Positions 6,515 to 16,511 of a stretch of DNA of 17,262 nt are shown in pieces. Numbering within the stretch: position 1 is the first letter of the stretch; each line of letters begins with the position of its first letter. Location of the stretch: the NCBI GenBank assembly GCA_028276365.1, contig JAPYWL010000025.1, positions 1 through 17,262 on the forward strand. Reading direction: 5' to 3'. Source of the DNA: Deltaproteobacteria bacterium. Lineage in GTDB: Bacteria > DRYD01. The notes under the pieces were generated by a model, which was not told where the DNA came from, ran no database searches, and worked only from the letters and a program-made list of their open reading frames with translations. A program made the translations under genes and the position numbers.

Positions 6515-7048
6515 TTGTACATTTTTGAAGGAAATTTATTGAAATTAAAAAAAGAGGAAGGTTATGAAATTGTAGAACATCCTGGAGCTTGTGCTATTAT
6601 TATTCATTACAGAAAAAATAATAATGATAAAGAAAATAATAATGAAGAAAAAATTTGCTTAGTAAAACAATATAGGAAGCCCATAGAAAAATTTTTATGG
6701 GAGTTACCTGCAGGTAAAATTGATAAACAGGACCCTAATTTGATTGAAACTATAAAACGAGAAACCTTTGAGGAAACAGGGATTCTTATTGATGAAAATA
6801 AAATCAAATACTTAGGTTATATATATACTACTCCTGGTTTCTCTAATGAAGTGATTCATATTTTTTATTATCTTTTGGATTCTTTTGATAATATTTCATT
6901 AAAACAAATGGATTTTAATGAAATAGATGATATTAAGTTTTTTAGTATAAAAGAGATAAAAGAAATGATTTTAAAAAATGAGATAACTGATACTAAAACT
7001 TTATCTGCTTTTACTTTGGCTAATATTTATGATCTTATAAAATTTTAA
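6515..7048 (+). CDS. NUDIX hydrolase, ADP-ribose pyrophosphatase type
   Basis: This family hydrolyses nucleoside-diphosphate-linked compounds; the ADP-ribose type yields AMP and ribose-5-phosphate. The 177-residue chain contains LVKQYRKPIEKFLWELPAGKID (about 49-70), the characteristic lead-in of ADPRases. The NUDIX box follows at 67-90, ending REtfEEtG with the metal-binding residues. The box is slightly unusual: an Asp stands where the first conserved Glu is expected, and one extra residue separates it from RE. A low-complexity Asn/Glu/Lys insert lies at about 34-46. The start is TTG at 6515, chosen because AGAGGTGAT lies 8 bases upstream and the downstream protein begins like other family members. 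It follows acs by 64 bp. Confidence 0.88.
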   Translation: MYIFEGNLLKLKKEEGYEIVEHPGACAIIIHYRKNNNDKENNNEEKICLVKQYRKPIEKFLWELPAGKIDKQDPNLIETIKRETFEETGILIDENKIKYLGYIYTTPGFSNEVIHIFYYLLDSFDNISLKQMDFNEIDDIKFFSIKEIKEMILKNEITDTKTLSAFTLANIYDLIKF

Positions 7049-7080: not shown

Positions 7081-7228
7081 TGTCCTGATAATCAAGAGAT
7101 CTAGAGCTGGAGCGGCCAAAGTTAAGTTTTTAAAACATGCTCTAGTAGATGACCGGATTCCTTACAGGATACCTAAAAAGCCATCATGCTTTCAAGCAGG
7201 AGGCTCCACCTTTTACAAGGTGGAGTAG
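7081..7228 (+). ncRNA. OmegaRNA/reRNA-like structured region of a TnpB element (remnant)
   Basis: This stretch is clearly richer in G+C than its surroundings and can fold into nested stems. TGTCCTG (7081-7087) pairs with CAGGATA (7165-7171) with one G-U pair. Inside it, CTAGAGC (7101-7107) pairs perfectly with GCTCTAG (7139-7145). Downstream, CTCCACCTT (7204-7212) pairs perfectly with AAGGTGGAG (7217-7225). Overlap with the tnpB tail and placement at the element's 3' end is how TnpB guide RNAs are encoded. The structure is seen in the sequence; its identity as an omegaRNA is inference, and an unrelated structured RNA is possible. Confidence 0.4.
7204..7225 (+). mobile_element. Right-end hairpin of an IS200/IS605-family element
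   Basis: A perfect 9-bp stem (CTCCACCTT / AAGGTGGAG) with the loop TTAC is followed by TAGTTTGC and preceded by CAAGCAGGAGG. The pattern 'aGCagGAgGCTCCACC...GGTGGAGTAGTT' is the familiar subterminal palindrome at the right end of many IS200/IS605 and TnpB-only elements, where the TnpA transposase recognises it. No left end or tnpA is present in the window, so the element is truncated and immobile by itself. Confidence 0.55.
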
Positions 7229-7249
7229 TTTGCTTTTGGGGATATATTT

Positions 7250-7397: not shown

Positions 7398-8921
7398 ATG
7401 AAATTATTACCAATAGGGATAAGTGATTTTAGAGAGCTAATAGTAGGTGGATATATATATGTGGATAAGACAGAGTATATATATAAGTTATTAAGAAATG
7501 GGAAATATTATTTTCTAAGTCGTCCAAGACGTTTTGGAAAATCGTTATTAATTTCTACGCTTGAGTATTTATTTAAAGGAGAAAAGGAGTTATATAAAGG
7601 ATTGTATATAGAGGATAAGTGGAAATGGGAAGAGACTTATCCAGTGATAAGAATAGACTTTGCCAAAGATATAAAAAATAAGGAAGATTTAAAGGAGAAG
7701 GTGTATCAGGAATTAAGAAAGAATTATATGTGGAATAAATTGGAGATGTCAAAGGAAATAAGAGATGAGAGTATATTATTAGAGGAGCTAATAATGAGGA
7801 TAAATGAGAAGGAGAAGAAGCAAGTGGTAGTATTAGTAGATGAATATGATAAGCCCATATTAGATGTCATAGAGGATAAAAAAGAAGCAGAAAAAGTTAG
7901 AAAAGAACTAAAAGGATTTTATTCAACATTAAAAGGATTAGATAGGTATATAAGGTTTGTATTAATAACAGGAGTAAGCAAATTTTCAAAGGTATCATTA
8001 TTTAGTGGATTAAATCAATTGAAGGATATATCATTAGATGTAAGATATGGGAATATATGTGGATATACTCAAGAGGAATTAGAGTTTTATTTTAAGGAGT
8101 ATTTAGAAGAGGTGAATTTAGAAGAAGTAAGAGAATGGTATAATGGATATAATTTTTTAGGTGAAAAAGTATATAATCCATTTGATATATTGTTGTATTT
8201 AGATAGTAAAAAGTTTAAGAATTATTGGTATGAGACGGGAAAAACGGAGTTTTTATTTAAGTTGTTAAAGGAAAAAGAGTATAAATTACCGTTTTTAGAG
8301 AAGGAATATTATACAAATGATATATTGGAGAAGTTTGATATAGAGTATATAGGAATAGAGGCATTGATGTATCAAACGGGGTATTTAACAATAAAAGATG
8401 TAAAAAGGATAGAAGAAGAGGAGGTATATGTATTAGATTATCCGAATAGAGAGGTAAGACAATCATTTAATAGGGAGTTATTGTATTATATAACGGGGGA
8501 ATATCAGATTGATAAGACATCAAAACTGAAGATGGCTTTTATAAAAGAGGATATAGAAGAGATAAGAAATCAAATAGAGATATTTATGGAATCAATGAGT
8601 TATGAGATATTAAGGAATGAGTATGTATATCAAGCTGCGATATATGGATTAATATATTCTACAGGATTTAGTATCATATTAGAGGATACTACTTTTAAAG
8701 GAAGAATAGATTTAACAATCTTGGTAAATAGAAGTATAGTATATATAATGGAATTTAAAGTTATTCAAGATGAAAAAGAAAAAGGGAAGGCAGTAAAGCA
8801 AATAGAGGAAAAAGAGTATTATAAGAAGTATTTAAATTATGAAAAAGTGTATATAGTAGGAGTGGAGTTTGATAAAACAAAAAAACAGATCGTTAATTTT
8901 GAATATAAACAGGTTAAATAA
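7398..8921 (+). CDS. AAA-ATPase-like / PD-(D/E)XK nuclease-like protein, copy A
   Basis: This 507-residue protein has an N-terminal P-loop ATPase-like domain. The Walker A-like SRPRRFGKS is at 41-49 (K48), the Walker B-like VVVLVDEYDKPILD has D148-E149, and the sensor-like stretch reads FVLITGVSKFSKVSLFSG. The C-terminal nuclease-like domain has GRID (D438), EFK (E452, K454) and a helix with KQIEEKEYY, the PD-(D/E)XK pattern. This matches the PF09820 + DUF1703 architecture, whose function is unknown. The frame extends 14 codons upstream to a TTG at 7356. I chose ATG 7398 because GAAGGTGG lies just upstream and all paralogues begin MKLLPIGISDF or similar. Its N-terminal part (FRELIVGG, GKYYF, LISTLEYLFKGEKEL) differs from copies B-E, but its C-terminal half is nearly copy D, then copy C. 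Confidence 0.9.
   Translation: MKLLPIGISDFRELIVGGYIYVDKTEYIYKLLRNGKYYFLSRPRRFGKSLLISTLEYLFKGEKELYKGLYIEDKWKWEETYPVIRIDFAKDIKNKEDLKEKVYQELRKNYMWNKLEMSKEIRDESILLEELIMRINEKEKKQVVVLVDEYDKPILDVIEDKKEAEKVRKELKGFYSTLKGLDRYIRFVLITGVSKFSKVSLFSGLNQLKDISLDVRYGNICGYTQEELEFYFKEYLEEVNLEEVREWYNGYNFLGEKVYNPFDILLYLDSKKFKNYWYETGKTEFLFKLLKEKEYKLPFLEKEYYTNDILEKFDIEYIGIEALMYQTGYLTIKDVKRIEEEEVYVLDYPNREVRQSFNRELLYYITGEYQIDKTSKLKMAFIKEDIEEIRNQIEIFMESMSYEILRNEYVYQAAIYGLIYSTGFSIILEDTTFKGRIDLTILVNRSIVYIMEFKVIQDEKEKGKAVKQIEEKEYYKKYLNYEKVYIVGVEFDKTKKQIVNFEYKQVK
8301..8476 (+). repeat. 176-bp tract identical to 13815-13990 (copies A and D)
   Basis: By hand alignment this tract in copy A matches copy D base for base, with flanking mismatches at 8300/13814 and 8477/13991. 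The same two genes differ strongly in their N-terminal halves, so the shared block reflects recombination rather than a recent whole-gene duplication. Confidence 0.85.
8454..8596 (+). repeat. 143-bp tract identical to 12423-12565 (copies A and C)
   Basis: This is an exact match by hand between copies A and C, bounded by mismatches at 8453/12422 and 8597/12566. It starts inside the A-D identical tract, so copy A changes its closest relative from D to C within about 150 bp. Confidence 0.85.
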
Positions 8922-8939
8922 GATATATGGAGGTATAGG
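8922..8939 (+). promoter_or_regulatory. Array linker with ribosome-binding site, now in front of a dead start codon
   Basis: This 18-bp linker between copies A and A' has the same layout as the other array linkers, with GGAGG at 8929-8933. The position where the others have ATG is ATA here (8940-8942). Confidence 0.7.
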
Positions 8940-9260
8940 ATAAAATTATTACCAATAGGGATAAGTGATTTTAGAGAGCTAATAGTAGGTGGATATATAT
9001 ATGTGGATAAGACAGAGTATATATATAAGTTAATTATATATAAAAGAATTACATATGGAATAAAAAAGAGATACTAAAGGAAGTAAAAGATGAGAGTATA
9101 TTACTAAAGGAGCTAATATCGAAGGTAAGTTAAAAGGAGAAGAAGCAAGTGGTAGTATTAGTGGATGAATATGAGAATTTGATATTTAGATGTAATAGTG
9201 GGATAGAGCTAAATAAGGTAAAGAAGTAGGTATTGAATTATGAGTATATGAGAGTAAAAT
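8940..9260 (+). pseudogene. Degenerate sixth copy (A') of the AAA-ATPase-like/nuclease gene
   Basis: Right after the linker, 8943-9032 is identical to 7401-7490 of copy A (90 bp), but the start codon ATG has become ATA. The sequence then jumps, losing about 220 bp including the Walker A region. It resumes as a diverged match to copy A near 7720-7880 (GATGAGAGTATATTA and GAAGAAGCAAGTGGTAGTATTAG are recognisable) with stops and frameshifts, up to the Walker B region. Similarity fades around 9200-9260; nothing of the C-terminal half remains. It shares copy A's N-terminal variant (FRELIVGG), so it was a tandem duplicate of A. The right boundary is approximate. Confidence 0.85.
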
Positions 9261-9540
9261 AATGCTAAATGTTAGAGTTAAATTTTTAAAAAGTTTAACT
9301 TGTTAAGAAAAGATTTAAGTTGTTTTAAAAGATTTAAATTATCAAGCTTTAATGTGTTTCAGACTATTTAAGTTTTTTGTGTTTAAATTTTTAGTATTTA
9401 AATTTTTTTGAAGTGTTTTAAAGTGTTAAAAATTTATCAAAGGGTTTAAGTTGTATTTGAAGTATTTTTTTTTATATTTTTTAAAATTTTAATAATTTTA
9501 GAGTTATATTAGTTAGTATTCTGGAAATGGGAACTAAAAA
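9261..9540. other. Non-coding T-rich spacer with dispersed TTTAARTT motifs
   Basis: No plausible gene is present on either strand. The octamer TTTAA(A/G)TT occurs six times, at 9314, 9333, 9367, 9382, 9397 and 9445. Three of these (9367, 9382, 9397) are spaced exactly 15 bp apart. The run could be a decayed tandem repeat, protein-binding sites or low-complexity drift; AT-richness makes chance a real alternative. Confidence 0.5.
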
Positions 9541-9814
9541 AAGTAAAGGTAAATAAAGGAAACTAAAAGGAATTAAAAGAAACCAAAGAGAAATAAAAGG
9601 AGCAAAAGGAAGAAAAGGTAACTAAAGGTAGTAAGAGAAAAAAATAAAAAAGAGAAAAACAATTGGAAAAAAACAAAAAGAGTTAAAAAAGAGAAAAATA
9701 GAGAAAAAAGAGGAGATATAAAAAAATAAAAAAGAGAAAAATGAAAATGGAGGAATAAAAAGGGGAAAAGTAAAAAGAGGAGGTAGGAAAGTAGAAAAGA
9801 GGAGGAAGTAAAGG
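9541..9814. other. Long purine-rich tract leading into copy B
   Basis: By hand count 34 of 274 bases are pyrimidines, so the + strand is about 88% A/G. The texture is irregular repeats of AAAAGAG/AAAGGAA-like words. It carries no plausible protein; the minus-strand open frame across it is a Leu/Phe/Ser low-complexity shadow. The last bases (GAGGAGG at about 9798-9804) supply the ribosome site of copy B. Such polypurine stretches can form unusual DNA structures or yield an unstructured A/G-rich leader RNA, but no role is evident. Confidence 0.6.
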
Positions 9815-11347
9815 ATGAAGAAGTTATTACCAATAGGAATAAGCGATTTTAAGAAACTAAGAGAAGGAGGATATGTATATGTAGATAAGACGGAGTATAT
9901 ATATAGGTTAATAAAGGAGGGAGGGGGATATTATTTTTTAAGTCGTCCAAGACGCTTTGGAAAATCGTTATTGCTATCAACAATAAGGTATTTGTTTGAA
10001 GGGCAAAGAGAATTATTTAAAGGATTATATATAGAAGATAAATGGAATTGGGAAGAGACTTATCCAGTAATAAGAATAAGTTTTGCGAAAGATATAAAAA
10101 GAAAGGAGGATTTAAAAGGTAGAATAAGAGAGGAATTAGAGAAGAATTATGAAAGAAATGGAGAAGAGATGGAAGAGGGAAAAAGAGATGAGGGAAGCTT
10201 ATTAGAGAGGTTAGTAATAAAAATAAATAAGAAAAAAAGAAAACAGGTAGTGATATTAATAGATGAATATGATAAGCCGATATTAGATGTAATAGAGGAT
10301 AAAAAAGAAGCAGAGGAAGTAAGAAAAGAACTAAAAGGATTTTATTCAGTGTTAAAGGATTTGGACGAGTATATAAGGTTTGTAATAATAACGGGAGTGA
10401 GTAAGTTTTCAAAAGTATCATTATTTAGTGGATTAAACCAATTAAAGGATATATCATTAGATGAAAGATATGGGAATATATGTGGATATACGCAAGAGGA
10501 ATTAGAAAACTATTTTAAAGAGTATTTAGAAGGAGTAAATTTAGAAGAGGTAAGAGAATGGTATAATGGATATAGCTTTTTAGGAGAAAGATTATATAAT
10601 CCGTTTGATATATTGTTGTATTTAGATAGTAAGAATTTTGATAGTTATTGGTATAAGACAGGAACACCAAGTTTTTTAATAAAGTTAATAAAAGAAAGAG
10701 AATACGATATATTAGAATTAGAGAACAAAATAGTAAAGAAAAATGTATTAGAAAAATTTGACATAGAAGAGATAAGAATAGAAGCATTAATGTATCAAAC
10801 AGGGTATTTAACAATAAAAGAGGTATATAACAAAGAGTATGGACAGGAGTATAGATTAGGATTTCCGAATAAGGAGGTAAGAATATCGTTTAATGAGGAT
10901 ATATTACCTTTGGTATTAAAAGATGAAATAAGGGAGAATATATCGGGTAAGATAATAGAGATATTAAAGGGAGAGAAATTAGAGGAGCTAAGAGAACAGG
11001 TAGAAGTGTTAATAAGCAATATAAGTTATGTACATTATAGGGGGGAGTCAAGTTATGTAATAGCGATATTTAGTTTATTGTATACAACGGGATTAAATGT
11101 AATAACAGAAGATAATACAAATAAAGGTAGAATAGATTTAGCGGTAATAGTGGATAGGAGTATAGTGTATATAATAGAGGTGAAGGTAATAGAAAGAGAA
11201 GAGGAGAAAGGTAAAGCGATAAAGCAAATTCAAGAGAGGGAGTATTATAAGAAGTATTTAAATTATGAAAAAGTATATATAGTAGGTATAGAGATAAATA
11301 AGAATAAAAAACAGATTGTTTATTTTGAATATAAACAGGTTAAATAA
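9815..11347 (+). CDS. AAA-ATPase-like / PD-(D/E)XK nuclease-like protein, copy B
   Basis: This 510-residue protein is the first gene of the continuous four-gene array. It begins MKKLLPIG, with one extra Lys relative to its siblings. The Walker A-like SRPRRFGKS contains K50 and the Walker B pair is D150-E151. Nuclease motif residues D441, E455 and K457 are intact. Its middle segment is the 'KDIKRKEDLKGRIREELEKNYERNG' type shared with copy D. Its C-terminal segment is the 'NFDSYWYKTGTPSFLIKLIKE' type shared with copy E, including a 326-bp identical tract. It uses purine-ending codons (ATA, GTA, GGA, GAG) far more than acs or ruvC. The start is ATG 9815 behind GAGGAGG. Family function is unknown; ATP-dependent nuclease action is an inference from the domains. 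Confidence 0.92.
   Translation: MKKLLPIGISDFKKLREGGYVYVDKTEYIYRLIKEGGGYYFLSRPRRFGKSLLLSTIRYLFEGQRELFKGLYIEDKWNWEETYPVIRISFAKDIKRKEDLKGRIREELEKNYERNGEEMEEGKRDEGSLLERLVIKINKKKRKQVVILIDEYDKPILDVIEDKKEAEEVRKELKGFYSVLKDLDEYIRFVIITGVSKFSKVSLFSGLNQLKDISLDERYGNICGYTQEELENYFKEYLEGVNLEEVREWYNGYSFLGERLYNPFDILLYLDSKNFDSYWYKTGTPSFLIKLIKEREYDILELENKIVKKNVLEKFDIEEIRIEALMYQTGYLTIKEVYNKEYGQEYRLGFPNKEVRISFNEDILPLVLKDEIRENISGKIIEILKGEKLEELREQVEVLISNISYVHYRGESSYVIAIFSLLYTTGLNVITEDNTNKGRIDLAVIVDRSIVYIIEVKVIEREEEKGKAIKQIQEREYYKKYLNYEKVYIVGIEINKNKKQIVYFEYKQVK
10604..10929 (+). repeat. 326-bp tract identical to 15240-15565 (copies B and E)
   Basis: This exact hand-checked match between copies B and E covers the region after PFDILLYLDSKNFDSYW up to LKDE. 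The bounding mismatches are 10603/15239 and 10930/15566. The same genes carry different middle segments, so the block moved independently of the rest. Confidence 0.88.
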
Positions 11348-11363
11348 GATATGGAGGTAAAGG
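11348..11363 (+). promoter_or_regulatory. Array linker B/C with GGAGG ribosome-binding site
   Basis: These 16 bp read GATATGGAGGTAAAGG, directly followed by the ATG of copy C. It is two bases shorter (one TA less) than the C/D and D/E linkers. There is no room for a promoter or terminator, so B and C must be cotranscribed. Confidence 0.85.
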
Positions 11364-12890
11364 ATGAAATTATTACCAATAGGAATAAGCGATTTTAAGA
11401 AACTAAGAGAGGGCGGATACATATATGTAGATAAGACGGAGTATATATATAGGTTAATAAAGGAGGGAGGGGGATATTATTTTTTAAGTCGTCCAAGACG
11501 CTTTGGTAAATCGTTATTGCTATCAACAATAAGATATTTGTTTGAAGGGCAAAGAGAATTATTTAAGGGATTATATATGGAGGATAGGTGGAATTGGAAA
11601 GAAAGTTATCCAGTAATAAGGATAGATTTTGCAGAAGCACAGGTAAAGAATGTAGATGAACTAGAAAAAGAATTAAAAGCAACAATAATAGAAACAGGTA
11701 AAAAATATGGATATGAGTATAATAAGGAATATACAATAAATAGAAATTTAAGATTGTTAATAGAGGGAATATATGAAGAAAGTAAAAAACAGGTGGTGAT
11801 ATTAGTAGATGAATATGATAAACCGATATTGGATAATATAGAGAAAAGGGAAGAAGTAGAGAAGATAAGAGAAGTATTAAAGGGATTTTATACAACATTA
11901 AAAGGATTAGATGAATATATAAAGTTTGTATTAGTAACGGGAGTGAGTAAGTTTTCAAAAGTATCATTATTTAGTGGATTAAATCAGTTAGAAGATATAT
12001 CGTTAAGCAAAGAATATGGTAATATATGTGGATATACACAAGAGGAGCTAAAGAAGAATTTTAAGGAATATTTAGAAGGAGTGAATATAGAGGAGGTAAG
12101 GGAATGGTATAATGGATATAATTTTTTAGGGGATAGATTATATAATCCGTTTGATATATTGTTGTATTTAAAGAGTAAAAAGTTTAAGAATTATTGGTAT
12201 GAGACGGGAAAAACAGAATTTTTATTTAAGATGTTAAAAAGTCGGAATTATCAATTGCCATACTTAAATAAATTATATTATACGAATGAAATATTGGAGA
12301 AATTTGATATAGAATATATAAGCATAGAAGCGTTAATGTTCCAAACGGGATATTTAACAATAAAAGAGGTAAATAAGATAGAGGAAGAGGAATTATATGT
12401 ATTGGATTATCCAAATAAAGAAGTAAGACAATCATTTAATAGGGAGTTATTGTATTATATAACGGGGGAATATCAGATTGATAAGACATCAAAACTGAAG
12501 ATGGCTTTTATAAAAGAGGATATAGAAGAGATAAGAAATCAAATAGAGATATTTATGGAATCAATAAGTTATGAGATATTAAAGAATGAGTATGTATATC
12601 AAGCGGCGATATATGGATTAATGTATTCAATGGGATATATTGTAATAATAGAGGATAGCACATCAAAGGGGAGGATAGATATAACAATATTGATAAATAG
12701 AATGAAGGTATATATAATAGAGTTTAAGGTAATAGAGAAGGAGGAGGAAAAAGGGAAGGCAATAAAGCAAATAGAAGAAAAAGAGTATTATAAGAAGTAT
12801 TTAAATTATGAAAAAGTATATATAGTGGGTATAGAGATAAATAAGAATAAAAAACAGGTTATTAATTTTGAATATAAACAGGTTAAATAA
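11364..12890 (+). CDS. AAA-ATPase-like / PD-(D/E)XK nuclease-like protein, copy C
   Basis: This 508-residue protein has the Walker A-like SRPRRFGKS at 42-50 (K49) and VVILVDEYDKPILD with D149-E150. The nuclease motif residues are D439 (GRID), E453 and K455 (EFK), with Q469 in the following helix. The middle segment is the second type (AEAQVKNVDELEKELKATII), almost identical to copy E: 11634-11954 matches 14724-15044 with three substitutions. From the TGVSKF sensor stretch onward it switches to the copy D type (LEDISLSKEYGN), and its C-terminal segment is the 'KFKNYWYETGKTEFLFK' type. The first 150 bp are almost identical to copy D. It is cotranscribed with its neighbours through a 16-bp and an 18-bp linker. 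Confidence 0.92.
   Translation: MKLLPIGISDFKKLREGGYIYVDKTEYIYRLIKEGGGYYFLSRPRRFGKSLLLSTIRYLFEGQRELFKGLYMEDRWNWKESYPVIRIDFAEAQVKNVDELEKELKATIIETGKKYGYEYNKEYTINRNLRLLIEGIYEESKKQVVILVDEYDKPILDNIEKREEVEKIREVLKGFYTTLKGLDEYIKFVLVTGVSKFSKVSLFSGLNQLEDISLSKEYGNICGYTQEELKKNFKEYLEGVNIEEVREWYNGYNFLGDRLYNPFDILLYLKSKKFKNYWYETGKTEFLFKMLKSRNYQLPYLNKLYYTNEILEKFDIEYISIEALMFQTGYLTIKEVNKIEEEELYVLDYPNKEVRQSFNRELLYYITGEYQIDKTSKLKMAFIKEDIEEIRNQIEIFMESISYEILKNEYVYQAAIYGLMYSMGYIVIIEDSTSKGRIDITILINRMKVYIIEFKVIEKEEEKGKAIKQIEEKEYYKKYLNYEKVYIVGIEINKNKKQVINFEYKQVK
11634..11954 (+). repeat. 321-bp middle block nearly identical to 14724-15044 (copies C and E)
   Basis: Hand alignment shows three substitutions in 321 bp. The match breaks abruptly at the TGVSKF codons, where C continues TCAAAA like copy D and E continues GCTAAA with copy B-like sequence further on. 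This marks a recombination junction just after the Walker B/sensor region. Confidence 0.88.
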
Positions 12891-12908
12891 GATATATGGA
12901 GGTAAAGG
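12891..12908 (+). promoter_or_regulatory. Array linker C/D with GGAGG ribosome-binding site
   Basis: These 18 bp read GATATATGGAGGTAAAGG and directly precede the ATG of copy D. The linker is identical to the D/E linker. Confidence 0.85.
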
Positions 12909-14435
12909 ATGAAATTATTACCAATAGGAATAAGCGATTTTAAGAAACTAAGAGAGGGCGGATACATATATGTAGATAAGACGGAGTATATATATAGGTT
13001 AATAAAGGAGGGAGGGGGATATTATTTTTTAAGTCGTCCAAGACGCTTTGGAAAATCGTTATTGCTATCAACAATAAGATATTTGTTTGAAGGGCAAAAA
13101 GAATTATTTAAAGGATTATATATAGAAGATAAATGGAATTGGGAAGAGATTTATCCAGTAATAAGAATAAGTTTTGCGAAAGATATAAAAAGAAAGGAGG
13201 ATTTAAAAGGTAGGATAAGAGAGGAATTAGAGAAGAATTATGAAAGAAATGGAGAAGAGATGGAAGAGGGAAAAAAGGATGAGGGAAGCTTATTGGAGAA
13301 GTTAGTGATAAAAATAAATAAGAAAAAAAGAAAACAAGTAGTGGTATTAGTAGATGAATATGATAAGCCGATATTGGATGTAATAGAGGATAAAAAACAA
13401 GCTCAAGAGGTAAGAAAAGAACTAAAAAGATTTTATTCAGTGTTAAAAGATTTGGATGAGTATATAAAGTTTGTGTTAATAACGGGAGTGAGTAAGTTTT
13501 CAAAAGTATCATTATTTAGTGGATTAAATCAGTTAGAAGATATATCGTTAAGCAAAGAATATGGTAATATATGTGGATATACTCAAGAAGAGTTAGAGAT
13601 TTATTTTAAGGAGTATTTAGAGGGAGTGAATATAGAAGAGGTAAAGGAATGGTATAATGGATATAATTTTTTAGGTGAAAAAGTATATAATCCGTTTGAT
13701 ATATTGTTGTATTTAAAGAGTAAAATGTTTAAGAATTATTGGTATGAGACGGGAAAAACAGAGTTTTTATTTAAGTTGTTAAAGGAAAAAGAGTATAAAT
13801 TACCGTTTTTAGAAAAGGAATATTATACAAATGATATATTGGAGAAGTTTGATATAGAGTATATAGGAATAGAGGCATTGATGTATCAAACGGGGTATTT
13901 AACAATAAAAGATGTAAAAAGGATAGAAGAAGAGGAGGTATATGTATTAGATTATCCGAATAGAGAGGTAAGACAATCATTTAATAGGGAATTATTGTAT
14001 TATATAACAGGGGAGTATCAAAGTGATAGGACATCAAAGCTAAAGATAGCATTAATAGAAGAGGACATGGAAGAAATAAGGAGGCAGATAGAGGTATTTT
14101 TGGAAACAATAAGTTATGAGGTTTTGAAAAATGAGAATGTGTATCAAGCGGCGATATACGGGTTAATGTATGGGATGGGGTATGAAGTGGAGATAGAAGA
14201 TAGGACAATAAAGGGAAGGATAGATCTAACGGTGTTGATAAATAGGAAAAAGGTATATATAATAGAGCTAAAGTTGATAGAAAAGGAGAAGGAAAAAGGG
14301 AAATCGATAAAACAGATAGAAGAGAGAGAGTATTATAAGAAGTATTTAAATTATGAAAAAGTATATATAGTAGGTATAGAGATAAATAAGAATAAAAAAC
14401 AGGTTATTAATTTTGAATATAAACAGGTTAAATAA
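12909..14435 (+). CDS. AAA-ATPase-like / PD-(D/E)XK nuclease-like protein, copy D
   Basis: This 508-residue protein has K49 in the Walker A-like loop, D149-E150 in Walker B, and D439, E453 and K455 (ELK) in the nuclease motif, all intact. The N-terminus is nearly that of copy C. The middle segment is the copy B type (KDIKRKEDLKGRIREELEKN). The stretch after TGVSKF is the copy C type (SLSKEYGN). The following C-terminal block is the copy A type, with 176 identical bases. The last quarter (LIEEDMEEIRRQIEVFLETI, YGMGYEVEIED) is the most private part of this copy. It lies between two identical 18-bp linkers. Confidence 0.92.
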   Translation: MKLLPIGISDFKKLREGGYIYVDKTEYIYRLIKEGGGYYFLSRPRRFGKSLLLSTIRYLFEGQKELFKGLYIEDKWNWEEIYPVIRISFAKDIKRKEDLKGRIREELEKNYERNGEEMEEGKKDEGSLLEKLVIKINKKKRKQVVVLVDEYDKPILDVIEDKKQAQEVRKELKRFYSVLKDLDEYIKFVLITGVSKFSKVSLFSGLNQLEDISLSKEYGNICGYTQEELEIYFKEYLEGVNIEEVKEWYNGYNFLGEKVYNPFDILLYLKSKMFKNYWYETGKTEFLFKLLKEKEYKLPFLEKEYYTNDILEKFDIEYIGIEALMYQTGYLTIKDVKRIEEEEVYVLDYPNREVRQSFNRELLYYITGEYQSDRTSKLKIALIEEDMEEIRRQIEVFLETISYEVLKNENVYQAAIYGLMYGMGYEVEIEDRTIKGRIDLTVLINRKKVYIIELKLIEKEKEKGKSIKQIEEREYYKKYLNYEKVYIVGIEINKNKKQVINFEYKQVK

Positions 14436-14453
14436 GATATATGGAGGTAAAGG
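14436..14453 (+). promoter_or_regulatory. Array linker D/E with GGAGG ribosome-binding site
   Basis: These 18 bp are identical to the C/D linker and directly precede the ATG of copy E. Confidence 0.85.
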
Positions 14454-15983
14454 ATGAAATTATTACCAATAGGAATAAGCGATTTTAAGAAACTAAGAGA
14501 AGGAGGGTATGTATATGTAGATAAGACGGAGTATATATATAGGTTAATAAAGGAGGGCTCAGGATATTATTTTTTAAGTCGTCCAAGACGCTTTGGTAAA
14601 TCGTTATTGCTATCAACAATAAGGTATCTATTTGAAGGGCAAAGAGAATTCTTTAAAGGATTATATATGGAGGATAGGTGGAATTGGGAAGAAAGTTATC
14701 CAGTAATAAGGATAGATTTTGCGGAAGCACAGGTAAAGAATGTAGATGAACTAGAAAAAGAATTAAAAGCAACAATAATAGAAACAGGTAAAAAATATGG
14801 GTATGAGTATAATAAGGAATATACAATAAATAGAAATTTAAGATTGTTAATAGAGGGAATATATGAAGAAAGTAAGAAACAGGTGGTGATATTAGTAGAT
14901 GAATATGATAAACCGATATTGGATAATATAGAGAAAAGGGAAGAAGTAGAGAAGATAAGAGAAGTATTAAAAGGATTTTATACAACATTAAAAGGATTAG
15001 ATGAATATATAAAGTTTGTATTAGTAACGGGAGTGAGTAAGTTTGCTAAAGTATCATTATTTAGTGGATTAAACCAATTAAAGGATATCTCATTAGATGA
15101 AAGATATGGGAATATCTGTGGATATACACAAGAGGAATTAGAGTTTTATTTTAAGGAGTATTTAGAAGGAGTGAATTTGGAAGAGGTAAAGGAATGGTAT
15201 AACGGATACAGTTTTTTAGGAGAGAGATTATACAATCCATTTGATATATTGTTGTATTTAGATAGTAAGAATTTTGATAGTTATTGGTATAAGACAGGAA
15301 CACCAAGTTTTTTAATAAAGTTAATAAAAGAAAGAGAATACGATATATTAGAATTAGAGAACAAAATAGTAAAGAAAAATGTATTAGAAAAATTTGACAT
15401 AGAAGAGATAAGAATAGAAGCATTAATGTATCAAACAGGGTATTTAACAATAAAAGAGGTATATAACAAAGAGTATGGACAGGAGTATAGATTAGGATTT
15501 CCGAATAAGGAGGTAAGAATATCGTTTAATGAGGATATATTACCTTTGGTATTAAAAGATGAAATTAGGGAAAAAATAGCGGATAAGATAATAGAGATAT
15601 TAAAGAAAGAGGAAATAGAGAAATTAAGAGAACAGGTAGAGGTGTTAATAAGTAATATAAGTTATGTACATTATAAAGGGGAATCAAGTTACGTAATAGC
15701 GATATTTAGTTTATTATATTCTACGGGGTTAAATGTAATAACTGAAGATAATACTCATAAAGGTAGAATAGATTTAACAGTAATAGTTAATAAGAGGATA
15801 GTGTATATAATAGAGGTGAAGGTAATAGAAAGAGAAGAGGAGAAAGGGAAAGCAATAAAGCAGATAGAAGAGAGGGAATATTACAAGAAGTATATGAACT
15901 ATGAGAAGATATATATAGTAGGTATAGAGATAAATAAGAATAAAAAACAGATTGTTAATTTTGAATATAAACAAATTAAGTAA
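14454..15983 (+). CDS. AAA-ATPase-like / PD-(D/E)XK nuclease-like protein, copy E
   Basis: This 509-residue protein is the last gene of the array. The P-loop region has a small change (KEGSGYYF instead of KEGGGYYF); SRPRRFGKS (K49), D149-E150, and D440, E454 and K456 (EVK) are intact. The middle segment is the copy C type and the C-terminal segment the copy B type, the fourth possible combination. Its end differs slightly from the other copies (KQIK instead of KQVK, AAACAAATTAAG). The array linker is missing: only AAA separates its TAA from the ruvC start codon. No terminator follows, so it is probably cotranscribed with ruvC. Confidence 0.92.
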   Translation: MKLLPIGISDFKKLREGGYVYVDKTEYIYRLIKEGSGYYFLSRPRRFGKSLLLSTIRYLFEGQREFFKGLYMEDRWNWEESYPVIRIDFAEAQVKNVDELEKELKATIIETGKKYGYEYNKEYTINRNLRLLIEGIYEESKKQVVILVDEYDKPILDNIEKREEVEKIREVLKGFYTTLKGLDEYIKFVLVTGVSKFAKVSLFSGLNQLKDISLDERYGNICGYTQEELEFYFKEYLEGVNLEEVKEWYNGYSFLGERLYNPFDILLYLDSKNFDSYWYKTGTPSFLIKLIKEREYDILELENKIVKKNVLEKFDIEEIRIEALMYQTGYLTIKEVYNKEYGQEYRLGFPNKEVRISFNEDILPLVLKDEIREKIADKIIEILKKEEIEKLREQVEVLISNISYVHYKGESSYVIAIFSLLYSTGLNVITEDNTHKGRIDLTVIVNKRIVYIIEVKVIEREEEKGKAIKQIEEREYYKKYMNYEKIYIVGIEINKNKKQIVNFEYKQIK

Positions 15984-15986
15984 AAA

Positions 15987-16511
15987 ATGGTTTTTTTCTT
16001 CAATAAAAAAAAAGAGGAAATAATAATAGGTATAGATGCGGGAACTACCAGAATTGGGTATTCAATTTTAAGGGTTTATAAAAAAAAATCTAAAAACTTT
16101 AGTATTAGTTTAATTTCTTTTGGATTACTTGATATTACTGAAATTGAACATCATTTAAGATTGAAACAAATTTATAAAGAATTTAATAAGCTTTTAAAGA
16201 AATATAAACCAAATAGGGTTATAGTAGAAAGGTTGTATTTTAATTTAAATGCCAAGACTGCTATGGAGGTTAGCCAAGCTGTTGGGGTTATTACTTTAGC
16301 TTCTGCTTTAAATAATGTTTTTATAGATTATATAACCCCTACTCAAGTTAAATCGATAGTAGCTAATAATGGGAAAGCTACTAAGCAGGAGATAGCACAA
16401 AAGGTAAAGAGTTTTTTTGATATCCAAGATAAACTAATAGATGATATAACTGATGCTATTGCTATCGCTTTAGCCTTTGTTATTAAGGAATATTCTAATA
16501 ATAACTCTTAA
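15987..16511 (+). CDS. ruvC: Holliday junction resolvase RuvC
   Basis: This endonuclease resolves Holliday junctions with RuvAB in recombinational repair. The 174-residue length is normal. The catalytic acids are visible: D17 in GIDAGTTRIGY, E81 in VIVERLYF, and D153 and D156 in DDITDAIAIAL. The stretches TAMEVSQAVGVI and ITPTQVKSIVANNGKATKQEI are typical of RuvC. ATG 15987 gives about ten extra residues (MVFFFNKKKE) before the first strand compared with E. coli, where the first catalytic Asp is residue 7. No other ATG, GTG or TTG fits before D17. There is no good ribosome site ahead of it, which suggests translational coupling to copy E 3 bp upstream. The usual ruvA/ruvB neighbours are absent. 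Confidence 0.95.
   Translation: MVFFFNKKKEEIIIGIDAGTTRIGYSILRVYKKKSKNFSISLISFGLLDITEIEHHLRLKQIYKEFNKLLKKYKPNRVIVERLYFNLNAKTAMEVSQAVGVITLASALNNVFIDYITPTQVKSIVANNGKATKQEIAQKVKSFFDIQDKLIDDITDAIAIALAFVIKEYSNNNS

What the first reader, a model, noticed from the sequence alone, without database searches (positions are those of the whole stretch)
7398..15983. Tandem array of mosaic ATPase-nuclease paralogues: all four combinations of two swappable modules
Seen: two alternative middle segments (KDIKRKEDLKGRIREELEK type in B and D, with A close; AEAQVKNVDELEKELKATII type in C and E) and two alternative C-terminal segments (NFDSYWYKTGTPSFL type in B and E; KFKNYWYETGKTEFL type in A, C and D). A and D pair the first middle with the second C-terminus, B first with first, C second with second, and E second with first. 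The catalytic and P-loop motifs are conserved in every copy. Known: PF09820 + DUF1703 proteins are widespread, often multi-copy, and of unknown function. Inference: the array may be a diversity generator in which the variable parts determine target or partner, as in defence or conflict systems, while the ATPase and nuclease core is kept.
Basis: partly seen in the sequence, partly recalled or inferred. Interest (0 to 1): 0.88.

Follow-up and report, generated by a model that had tools for sequence, protein, structure and literature searches.

The report
Shuffled two-module ATPase-nuclease gene family
A bacterium carries about thirty copies of a predicted ATP-driven nuclease gene whose two variable parts have been swapped between copies independently of each other, and the same two parts are swapped in an unrelated phylum, which looks like a general way of building many versions of a nuclease switch whose job is still untested.

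Summary
It is not local: the genome has 29 full-length copies with 3 middle types x 2 C types, all six combinations, no association (p=0.63). Each segment's tree rejects the other's grouping (AU p 6e-7 and 2e-37). The sister species has both C types and two middle types, but lacks this array: its NUDIX and ruvC genes are adjacent. The complete genome of gammaproteobacterium HdN1 (22 copies) repeats the pattern: 2 middle x 3 C types, all six combinations, with tandem copies about 97-100% identical in DNA except in one ~50-codon block. An AlphaFold model (pLDDT 93) resembles archaeal STAND-like ATPases, with a Wolbachia CidB/CinB-like nuclease at the end. The middle module is two helices before Walker B; the C module is the winged helix plus linker. 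Recombining DUF1703 expansions are already published (Cardinium); the two-module organisation, its free assortment and its recurrence across phyla appear new in the literature I could search. A conflict or toxin role is plausible but untested, as is selection for diversity over neutral gene conversion.

The parts
7398..8921 (+). copy A, PF09820 ATPase + PD-(D/E)XK nuclease; middle type 1 (subtype NYMWN), C type II
7656..7820 (+). middle module of A (type 1)
   Evidence: boundaries from breakpoint histogram
8208..8666 (+). C module of A (type II)
8940..9262 (+). decayed sixth copy (two PF09820 fragments with stops and deletions)
9815..11347 (+). copy B; middle type 1, C type I
10079..10243 (+). 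middle module of B (type 1)
10631..11092 (+). C module of B (type I)
11364..12890 (+). copy C; middle type 2, C type II
11625..11789 (+). middle module of C (type 2)
12177..12635 (+). C module of C (type II)
12909..14435 (+). copy D; middle type 1, C type II
   Evidence: AlphaFold model
13170..13334 (+). middle module of D (type 1)
13722..14180 (+). C module of D (type II)
14454..15983 (+). copy E; middle type 2, C type I; stop codon 3 bases before ruvC
   Evidence: AlphaFold model
14715..14879 (+). middle module of E (type 2): two helices between beta-2 and the Walker B strand
15267..15728 (+). C module of E (type I): end of lid, winged helix, linker helices up to the nuclease
6515..7048 (+). 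left flank: NUDIX hydrolase, adjacent to ruvC in the sister species
15987..16511 (+). right flank: ruvC, adjacent to the NUDIX gene in the sister species

Best explanation
The array is one cluster of a genome-wide multigene family of DUF1703 proteins: a STAND-like P-loop ATPase with lid and winged helix, fused to a PD-(D/E)XK nuclease. Shown: copies occur in tandem and at dispersed sites, and homologous (ectopic) recombination between copies has reassorted two variable modules independently while the ATPase and nuclease core is kept. The modules are (1) the two-helix segment between beta-2 and Walker B, and (2) the winged-helix and linker region. Inferred: the protein is an ATP-dependent switch that licenses its nuclease in a conflict role (anti-phage, anti-plasmid, or toxin/addiction). 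The two modules are the surfaces that recognise a trigger or partner, so each copy is a different combination.
For: Modular recombination: block distances are uncorrelated (middle vs C r=0.03) while within-module blocks are linked (C1-C2 r=0.89; middle with the next 50-60 residues r=0.73); 6 of 6 combinations, p=0.63. AU tests reject each module's types as clades on the other's data. Breakpoints pile up at residues 80-99, 140-199, 260-289 and 410-470. In the sister species both C types occur, and each C clade holds copies of both species. HdN1 shows the same two modules, r=0.03, 6 of 6 combinations, p=0.49, and neighbouring genes nearly identical except in the middle block. Variability profiles of the two unrelated genomes agree along the protein (Spearman 0.69, p=3e-8). 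Fold: 2fna and 2qen Z 16, then CED-4, NRC4, Apaf-1, Avs3; nuclease like CidB/CinB, Z 12. Both module types give the same fold. dN/dS 0.12-0.27 within types, so the genes have been under purifying selection; between types it rises to about 0.8 (middle) and 0.5 (C). Context: three HdN1 copies are interleaved with an addiction-module component, TacA-GNAT, PIN-MazE-like and BrnTA genes. PMC6387759 cites an intact DUF1703 homologue as part of the MEDEA selfish element.
Against: No direct functional evidence. No PADLOC match. Most G000 copies sit among housekeeping genes rather than in defence islands. Only 2-3 discrete types per module in a genome, which is little for a repertoire of specificities. 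dS between types is near saturation, so dN/dS there is unreliable. The structural resemblance to STAND ATPases is shared with Orc/Cdc6, TnsC and BrxC at lower Z. The context sample has no matched control.
Confidence: 0.5

Rival explanations
1. Neutral gene conversion. Old, divergent paralogues of a nuclease family recombine wherever identity is high. The two segments stay distinct only because heterology stops conversion tracts there; no function depends on the combinations.
For: Breakpoints lie in conserved stretches flanking the modules. Genes in the family are often lost or broken: remnant in the window, fragments in several genomes. Discrete ancient types would persist passively.
Against: Whole modules have been replaced inside otherwise nearly identical genes (HdN1 tandem pair; G000 C93 pair with identical C-module proteins and different middles), so heterology does not protect them. 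The same two protein regions are the variable ones in unrelated phyla. Purifying selection within each type.
Confidence: 0.22
2. Selfish or mobile gene. The nuclease-ATPase promotes its own spread (homing-like, transposase-like or addiction), and the diversity reflects escape from host or sibling suppression rather than defence.
For: Dispersed copies between housekeeping genes; empty site at NUDIX-ruvC in the sister species; presence on plasmids and in a few phage records; TnsC among the fold matches; a DUF1703 homologue in the Tribolium MEDEA element (PMC6387759).
Against: No common terminal repeat or target-site duplication was seen around the copies compared, and two insertion places seem shared by both species.
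Confidence: 0.13
3. Assembly compatibility. The modules are oligomer interfaces that stop co-expressed paralogues from mixing, so diversity serves insulation rather than recognition of a target.
For: The middle module lies next to Walker B in the ATPase core and is linked to the block that follows it (residues about 145-210, with the helix at 162-180), r=0.73-0.75 in three genomes. STAND switches act as oligomers (PMC6468293, abstract).
Against: Only two or three types among about 30 copies, so most copies would still mix; free assortment of the two modules is not needed for insulation.
Confidence: 0.12
4. Assembly artefact: the array and its mosaics are chimeras of collapsed repeats in a metagenome bin.
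For: The genome is in 124 contigs, and many contigs end at or near a copy.
Against: All five frames are open with all motifs. The same mosaic pattern is seen in a complete genome record (HdN1), in Desulfobotulus alkaliphilus and in the sister species' bin.
Confidence: 0.03

Closest known systems
DUF1703 family (PF09820 AAA-ATPase_like + PF08011 PDDEXK_9), expansion in Cardinium cCpun (PMC6387759)
   Same: Same two-domain proteins, 25 paralogues in one genome, intragenic recombination between paralogues found by network and RDP4/PHI tests; function unknown.
   Different: The sections I read of that paper do not define modules, breakpoints, free assortment or a whole-protein structure, and report no apparent homogenisation (average identity 39%). 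Here recombination is resolved into two modules, shared by two species and repeated in an unrelated phylum.
STAND NTPases (archaeal SSO1545/PABY2304; CED-4, Apaf-1, plant NRC4, bacterial Avs3)
   Same: Predicted nucleotide-binding core with lid and winged helix, fused to an effector domain; best structural matches Z 16 and 11-13.
   Different: No repeat sensor domain was found; the nuclease is C-terminal; Walker A is the atypical RPRRFGKS. Trigger and oligomerisation are unknown.
Plant NLR gene clusters (established knowledge, recalled)
   Same: Tandem and dispersed paralogues of a nucleotide switch made mosaic by unequal crossing-over and gene conversion.
   Different: Two or three discrete types per module here instead of continuous variation in a repeat sensor; no immune role shown.
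DGR-diversified NACHT/STAND conflict systems (PMC10907252)
   Same: Diversity generation in proteins around STAND-type switches.
   Different: No reverse transcriptase was found in this genome; variation comes from recombination between whole paralogues.
Wolbachia CidB/CinB nucleases
   Same: Predicted nuclease domain fold, Z 12 over about 137 residues.
   Different: Different architecture: CifB proteins carry two nuclease domains and pair with CifA; no such pair is seen here.
Rpn/YhgA-like recombination-promoting nucleases (PMC5350276)
   Same: Multi-copy PD-(D/E)XK family with paralogues in one genome.
   Different: A different Pfam family (PF04754), without the PF09820 ATPase (own knowledge).

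Membership tests
DUF1703 (PF09820 + PF08011) | PF09820 AAA-ATPase_like domain over the curated cut-off | tested here: met
   220-236 bits against a cut-off of 26.1 in all five genes
DUF1703 (PF09820 + PF08011) | C-terminal PDDEXK_9 domain | tested here: met
   B-E 51-58 bits against 25.5; A not reported at E 0.001 but keeps D and ExK
DUF1703 (PF09820 + PF08011) | Atypical Walker A RPRRFGKS and Walker B DEYD | tested here: met
   Present in all five genes; motif as described in PMC1913061
STAND NTPases | P-loop ATPase core + lid + winged helix | tested here: met
   AlphaFold model and matches to 2fna/2qen over residues 2-360, Z 16; fold only
STAND NTPases | Sequence signature of a STAND subfamily (NACHT, NB-ARC, ATPase_2) | tested here: not met
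   Only PF09820 and PF08011 reported by Pfam at E 0.001; so I call it STAND-like, not a member
STAND NTPases | Trigger-dependent oligomerisation | not testable with these tools
   Needs biochemistry
Known anti-phage defence system | Match to a PADLOC model | tested here: not met
   0 families at E 0.1 for the five proteins
Diversity-generating retroelement | Reverse transcriptase in the genome | tested here: not met
   No PF00078 match in the bin, 87% complete
Shufflon / phase-variable invertible array | Site-specific recombinase with inverted repeats bounding the modules | tested here: not met
   Only imperfect 18-25 nt inverted matches within coding sequence; one tyrosine recombinase in the genome
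Integron cassettes or transposon | Common ends or target-site duplications around copies | tested here: inconclusive
   No shared ends seen in 500-base flanks or at the empty site; bin is fragmented

The most novel reading that the evidence does not exclude
DUF1703 is a widespread combinatorial nuclease system. Its STAND-like switches carry two independent recognition modules that are kept as discrete ancient types and reshuffled by recombination between paralogues, giving many bacteria an NLR-cluster-like repertoire against mobile DNA or competitors.
Probability: 0.3. Interest if true: 0.85.

Novelty: new variant of a known kind. Interest (0 to 1): 0.62.

Why it matters
Genes of this family are common and often multi-copy, yet have no known function. 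Finding that variation sits in two exchangeable modules, at the same places of the protein in unrelated phyla, gives specific surfaces to test and turns 'unknown multi-copy nuclease' into a testable two-module switch. If the modules set specificity, this would be a prokaryotic counterpart of mosaic immune-receptor clusters made by recombination rather than by targeted mutation.

Tried and rejected
Annotated defence system: no PADLOC match. Solved relatives by sequence: none. DGR: no reverse transcriptase. Shufflon: no convincing inverted repeats at module borders. Link to ruvC function: rejected, because ruvC sits next to the NUDIX gene without the array in the sister species. Rfam RNA in the window: none. 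Mobile unit with fixed ends: 500-base flanks show repeated purine-rich leaders and some shared downstream stretches but no common border. A broad scan of the neighbours of 79 outside loci was prepared but not run, since no matched control was available. Literature: few papers mention DUF1703/PF09820/PF08011, and I found none that describes modules.
Full report
What is there. The window holds five intact tandem genes on the + strand, A-E (7398-15983), of 507-510 residues, each with PF09820 and a PD-(D/E)XK nuclease end. B-E are spaced by about 20 bases; A is separated from B by about 890 bases that contain a decayed sixth copy (8940-9262). All Walker A, Walker B and nuclease residues are kept.

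Mosaic structure. Identity between any two copies can jump from 37-60% to 98-100% at sharp borders, and the partner changes along the gene: A matches D over residues 281-360 but C over 361-400; C matches E over 81-200 but D over 1-60. Neighbouring sites are far more compatible than in shuffles (0.133 against 0.474, sd 0.008), the signature of recombination.

Genome-wide. The bin has 32 PF09820 matches, from which I extracted 29 full-length genes. Middle types 1, 2, 3 occur with C types I/II as 9/5, 5/6 and 2/2 (p=0.63). Distances in the middle module are uncorrelated with those in the C module (r=0.03). Linked stretches are the middle with residues 150-210 (r=0.73) and the two halves of the C module (r=0.89). 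On the C-module tree the middle type changes 11 times and on the middle tree the C type changes 9 times; the AU test rejects middle type 1 as a clade on C data (p=6e-7) and C type I as a clade on middle data (p=2e-37). Breakpoints concentrate at residues 80-99, 140-199, 260-289 and 410-470. One pair on contig C93 has identical C-module proteins and different middle types.

Age and position. In the sister species (G001) both C types and two middle types occur; each C clade contains copies of both species, so the C types are older than the split. The second middle type rests on a single, long-branched G001 copy. Yet the array itself is absent there: NUDIX and ruvC lie about 30 bases apart. Two other positions (next to ksgA and next to a 1001-residue gene) appear to hold copies in both species. 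Copies turn over by locus while the module types persist.

Independent replication. Gammaproteobacterium HdN1 has a complete genome with 22 full-length copies extracted. The middle module (54% mean identity) and C module (71-76%) vary, the remaining blocks are about 88% identical; middle and C are uncorrelated (0.03, -0.0); 2 middle x 3 C types give all six combinations (p=0.49). Two copies of one cluster are mostly 90-100% identical per 10 codons, and near 100% over the C-terminal half, except one block of about 50 codons at 20-56%. Desulfobotulus alkaliphilus and Methylotuvimicrobium buryatense show the same kind of swap in fewer copies; in the Latescibacteria genome the middle is also the most variable block, but blocks are more correlated. 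The variability profiles of G000 and HdN1 along the protein agree (Spearman 0.69).

Structure. AlphaFold models of E (middle 2, C I; pLDDT 92.8) and D (middle 1, C II; 90.2) have the same elements. The middle module is two helices (97-115, 125-140) between beta-2 and the Walker B strand. The C module runs from the end of the lid through the winged helix (strands 332-339, 342-348) to the helices before the nuclease. Best matches are archaeal ATPases SSO1545 and PABY2304 (Z 16), then CED-4, NRC4, Apaf-1, Avs3, NLRC4; the nuclease matches Wolbachia CidB/CinB (Z 12). Calling 332-348 a winged helix rests on the elements and on the ranges of those matches. A shared fold does not show function.

Selection. 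Within the same module types median dN/dS is 0.12-0.27 in every block; between types it is about 0.77 in the middle and about 0.5 in C. The latter is computed near saturation and is not a test of positive selection.

Function. Not shown. No PADLOC model matches. Neighbours of G000 copies are mostly housekeeping; exceptions among the few tested are a type IIG restriction-like protein, a SNF2-type helicase and a nucleotidyltransferase. In HdN1 three copies alternate with addiction-type genes. Relatives are on plasmids (60 records) and in 30 phage records. PMC6387759 cites a DUF1703 homologue as part of the MEDEA selfish element. I therefore favour an ATP-dependent nuclease switch in a conflict role whose two modules meet different partners or triggers. 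The recombination half is shown; the switch and recognition half is inferred.

Known or new. DUF1703 proteins and their domains are described (PMC1913061). A 25-copy expansion with intragenic recombination is published for Cardinium, with recombination also in a midge Rickettsia (PMC6387759). The definition of two freely assorting modules, their persistence across species, their recurrence in an unrelated phylum and their place on a STAND-like model appear to be new, within the limits of the open-access library searched. I did not read the supplementary tables of the Cardinium paper.

Limits. The genome is a fragmented bin. Context was sampled without a control. Strain-level data on shuffling are lacking.

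Noticed in passing
G001 copies (L031, L037-L042) and G000 copies (L013, L021): A 31-37 base palindromic element (TATAAC...GTTATA arms, variable but self-complementary inner stem) has 27 pattern matches in G001 and G000, at coordinates that fall in DUF1703 copies, and none on either strand in three other family genomes. In G001 34-base units sit at the same sites in several divergent copies and shift the frame, yet the open pieces on either side have no further stop in five copies and dN/dS 0.09-0.22. In G000 it is a 36-base in-frame insertion in two copies. Unexplained.
   Followed up: partly
window 8940-9262: Decayed DUF1703 copy between A and B.
   Followed up: yes
window 7100-7236: Repeat with a short hairpin (CTCCACC...GGTGGAG), reminiscent of an IS605-type end, with three good further copies (81-83%) in the genome; it lies at the left border of the array.
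   Followed up: partly
window 7398-15983: Array genes are strongly purine-rich on the coding strand (GC skew about 0.65 against 0.2-0.45 for most of the rest).
   Followed up: no
window 9520-9814: Purine-rich leader upstream of B, about 70-77% alike to leaders upstream of several other copies.
   Followed up: partly
protein residues 11-20, 31-40 and 211-220: Further short variable blocks (for example KDISLDERYG / EDISLSKEYG) in G000, with a similar dimorphism in HdN1 (LRDITLTREF / LNDITLDPLY) at 211-220.
   Followed up: partly
L178 (HdN1): Three DUF1703 copies alternate with an addiction-module component, TacA-GNAT, PIN-MazE-like and BrnTA genes.
   Followed up: yes
L012, L013, L017 (G000); L033, L035, L040 (G001): A glycine-rich lipoprotein-like gene family recurs next to DUF1703 copies in both species.
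   Followed up: no
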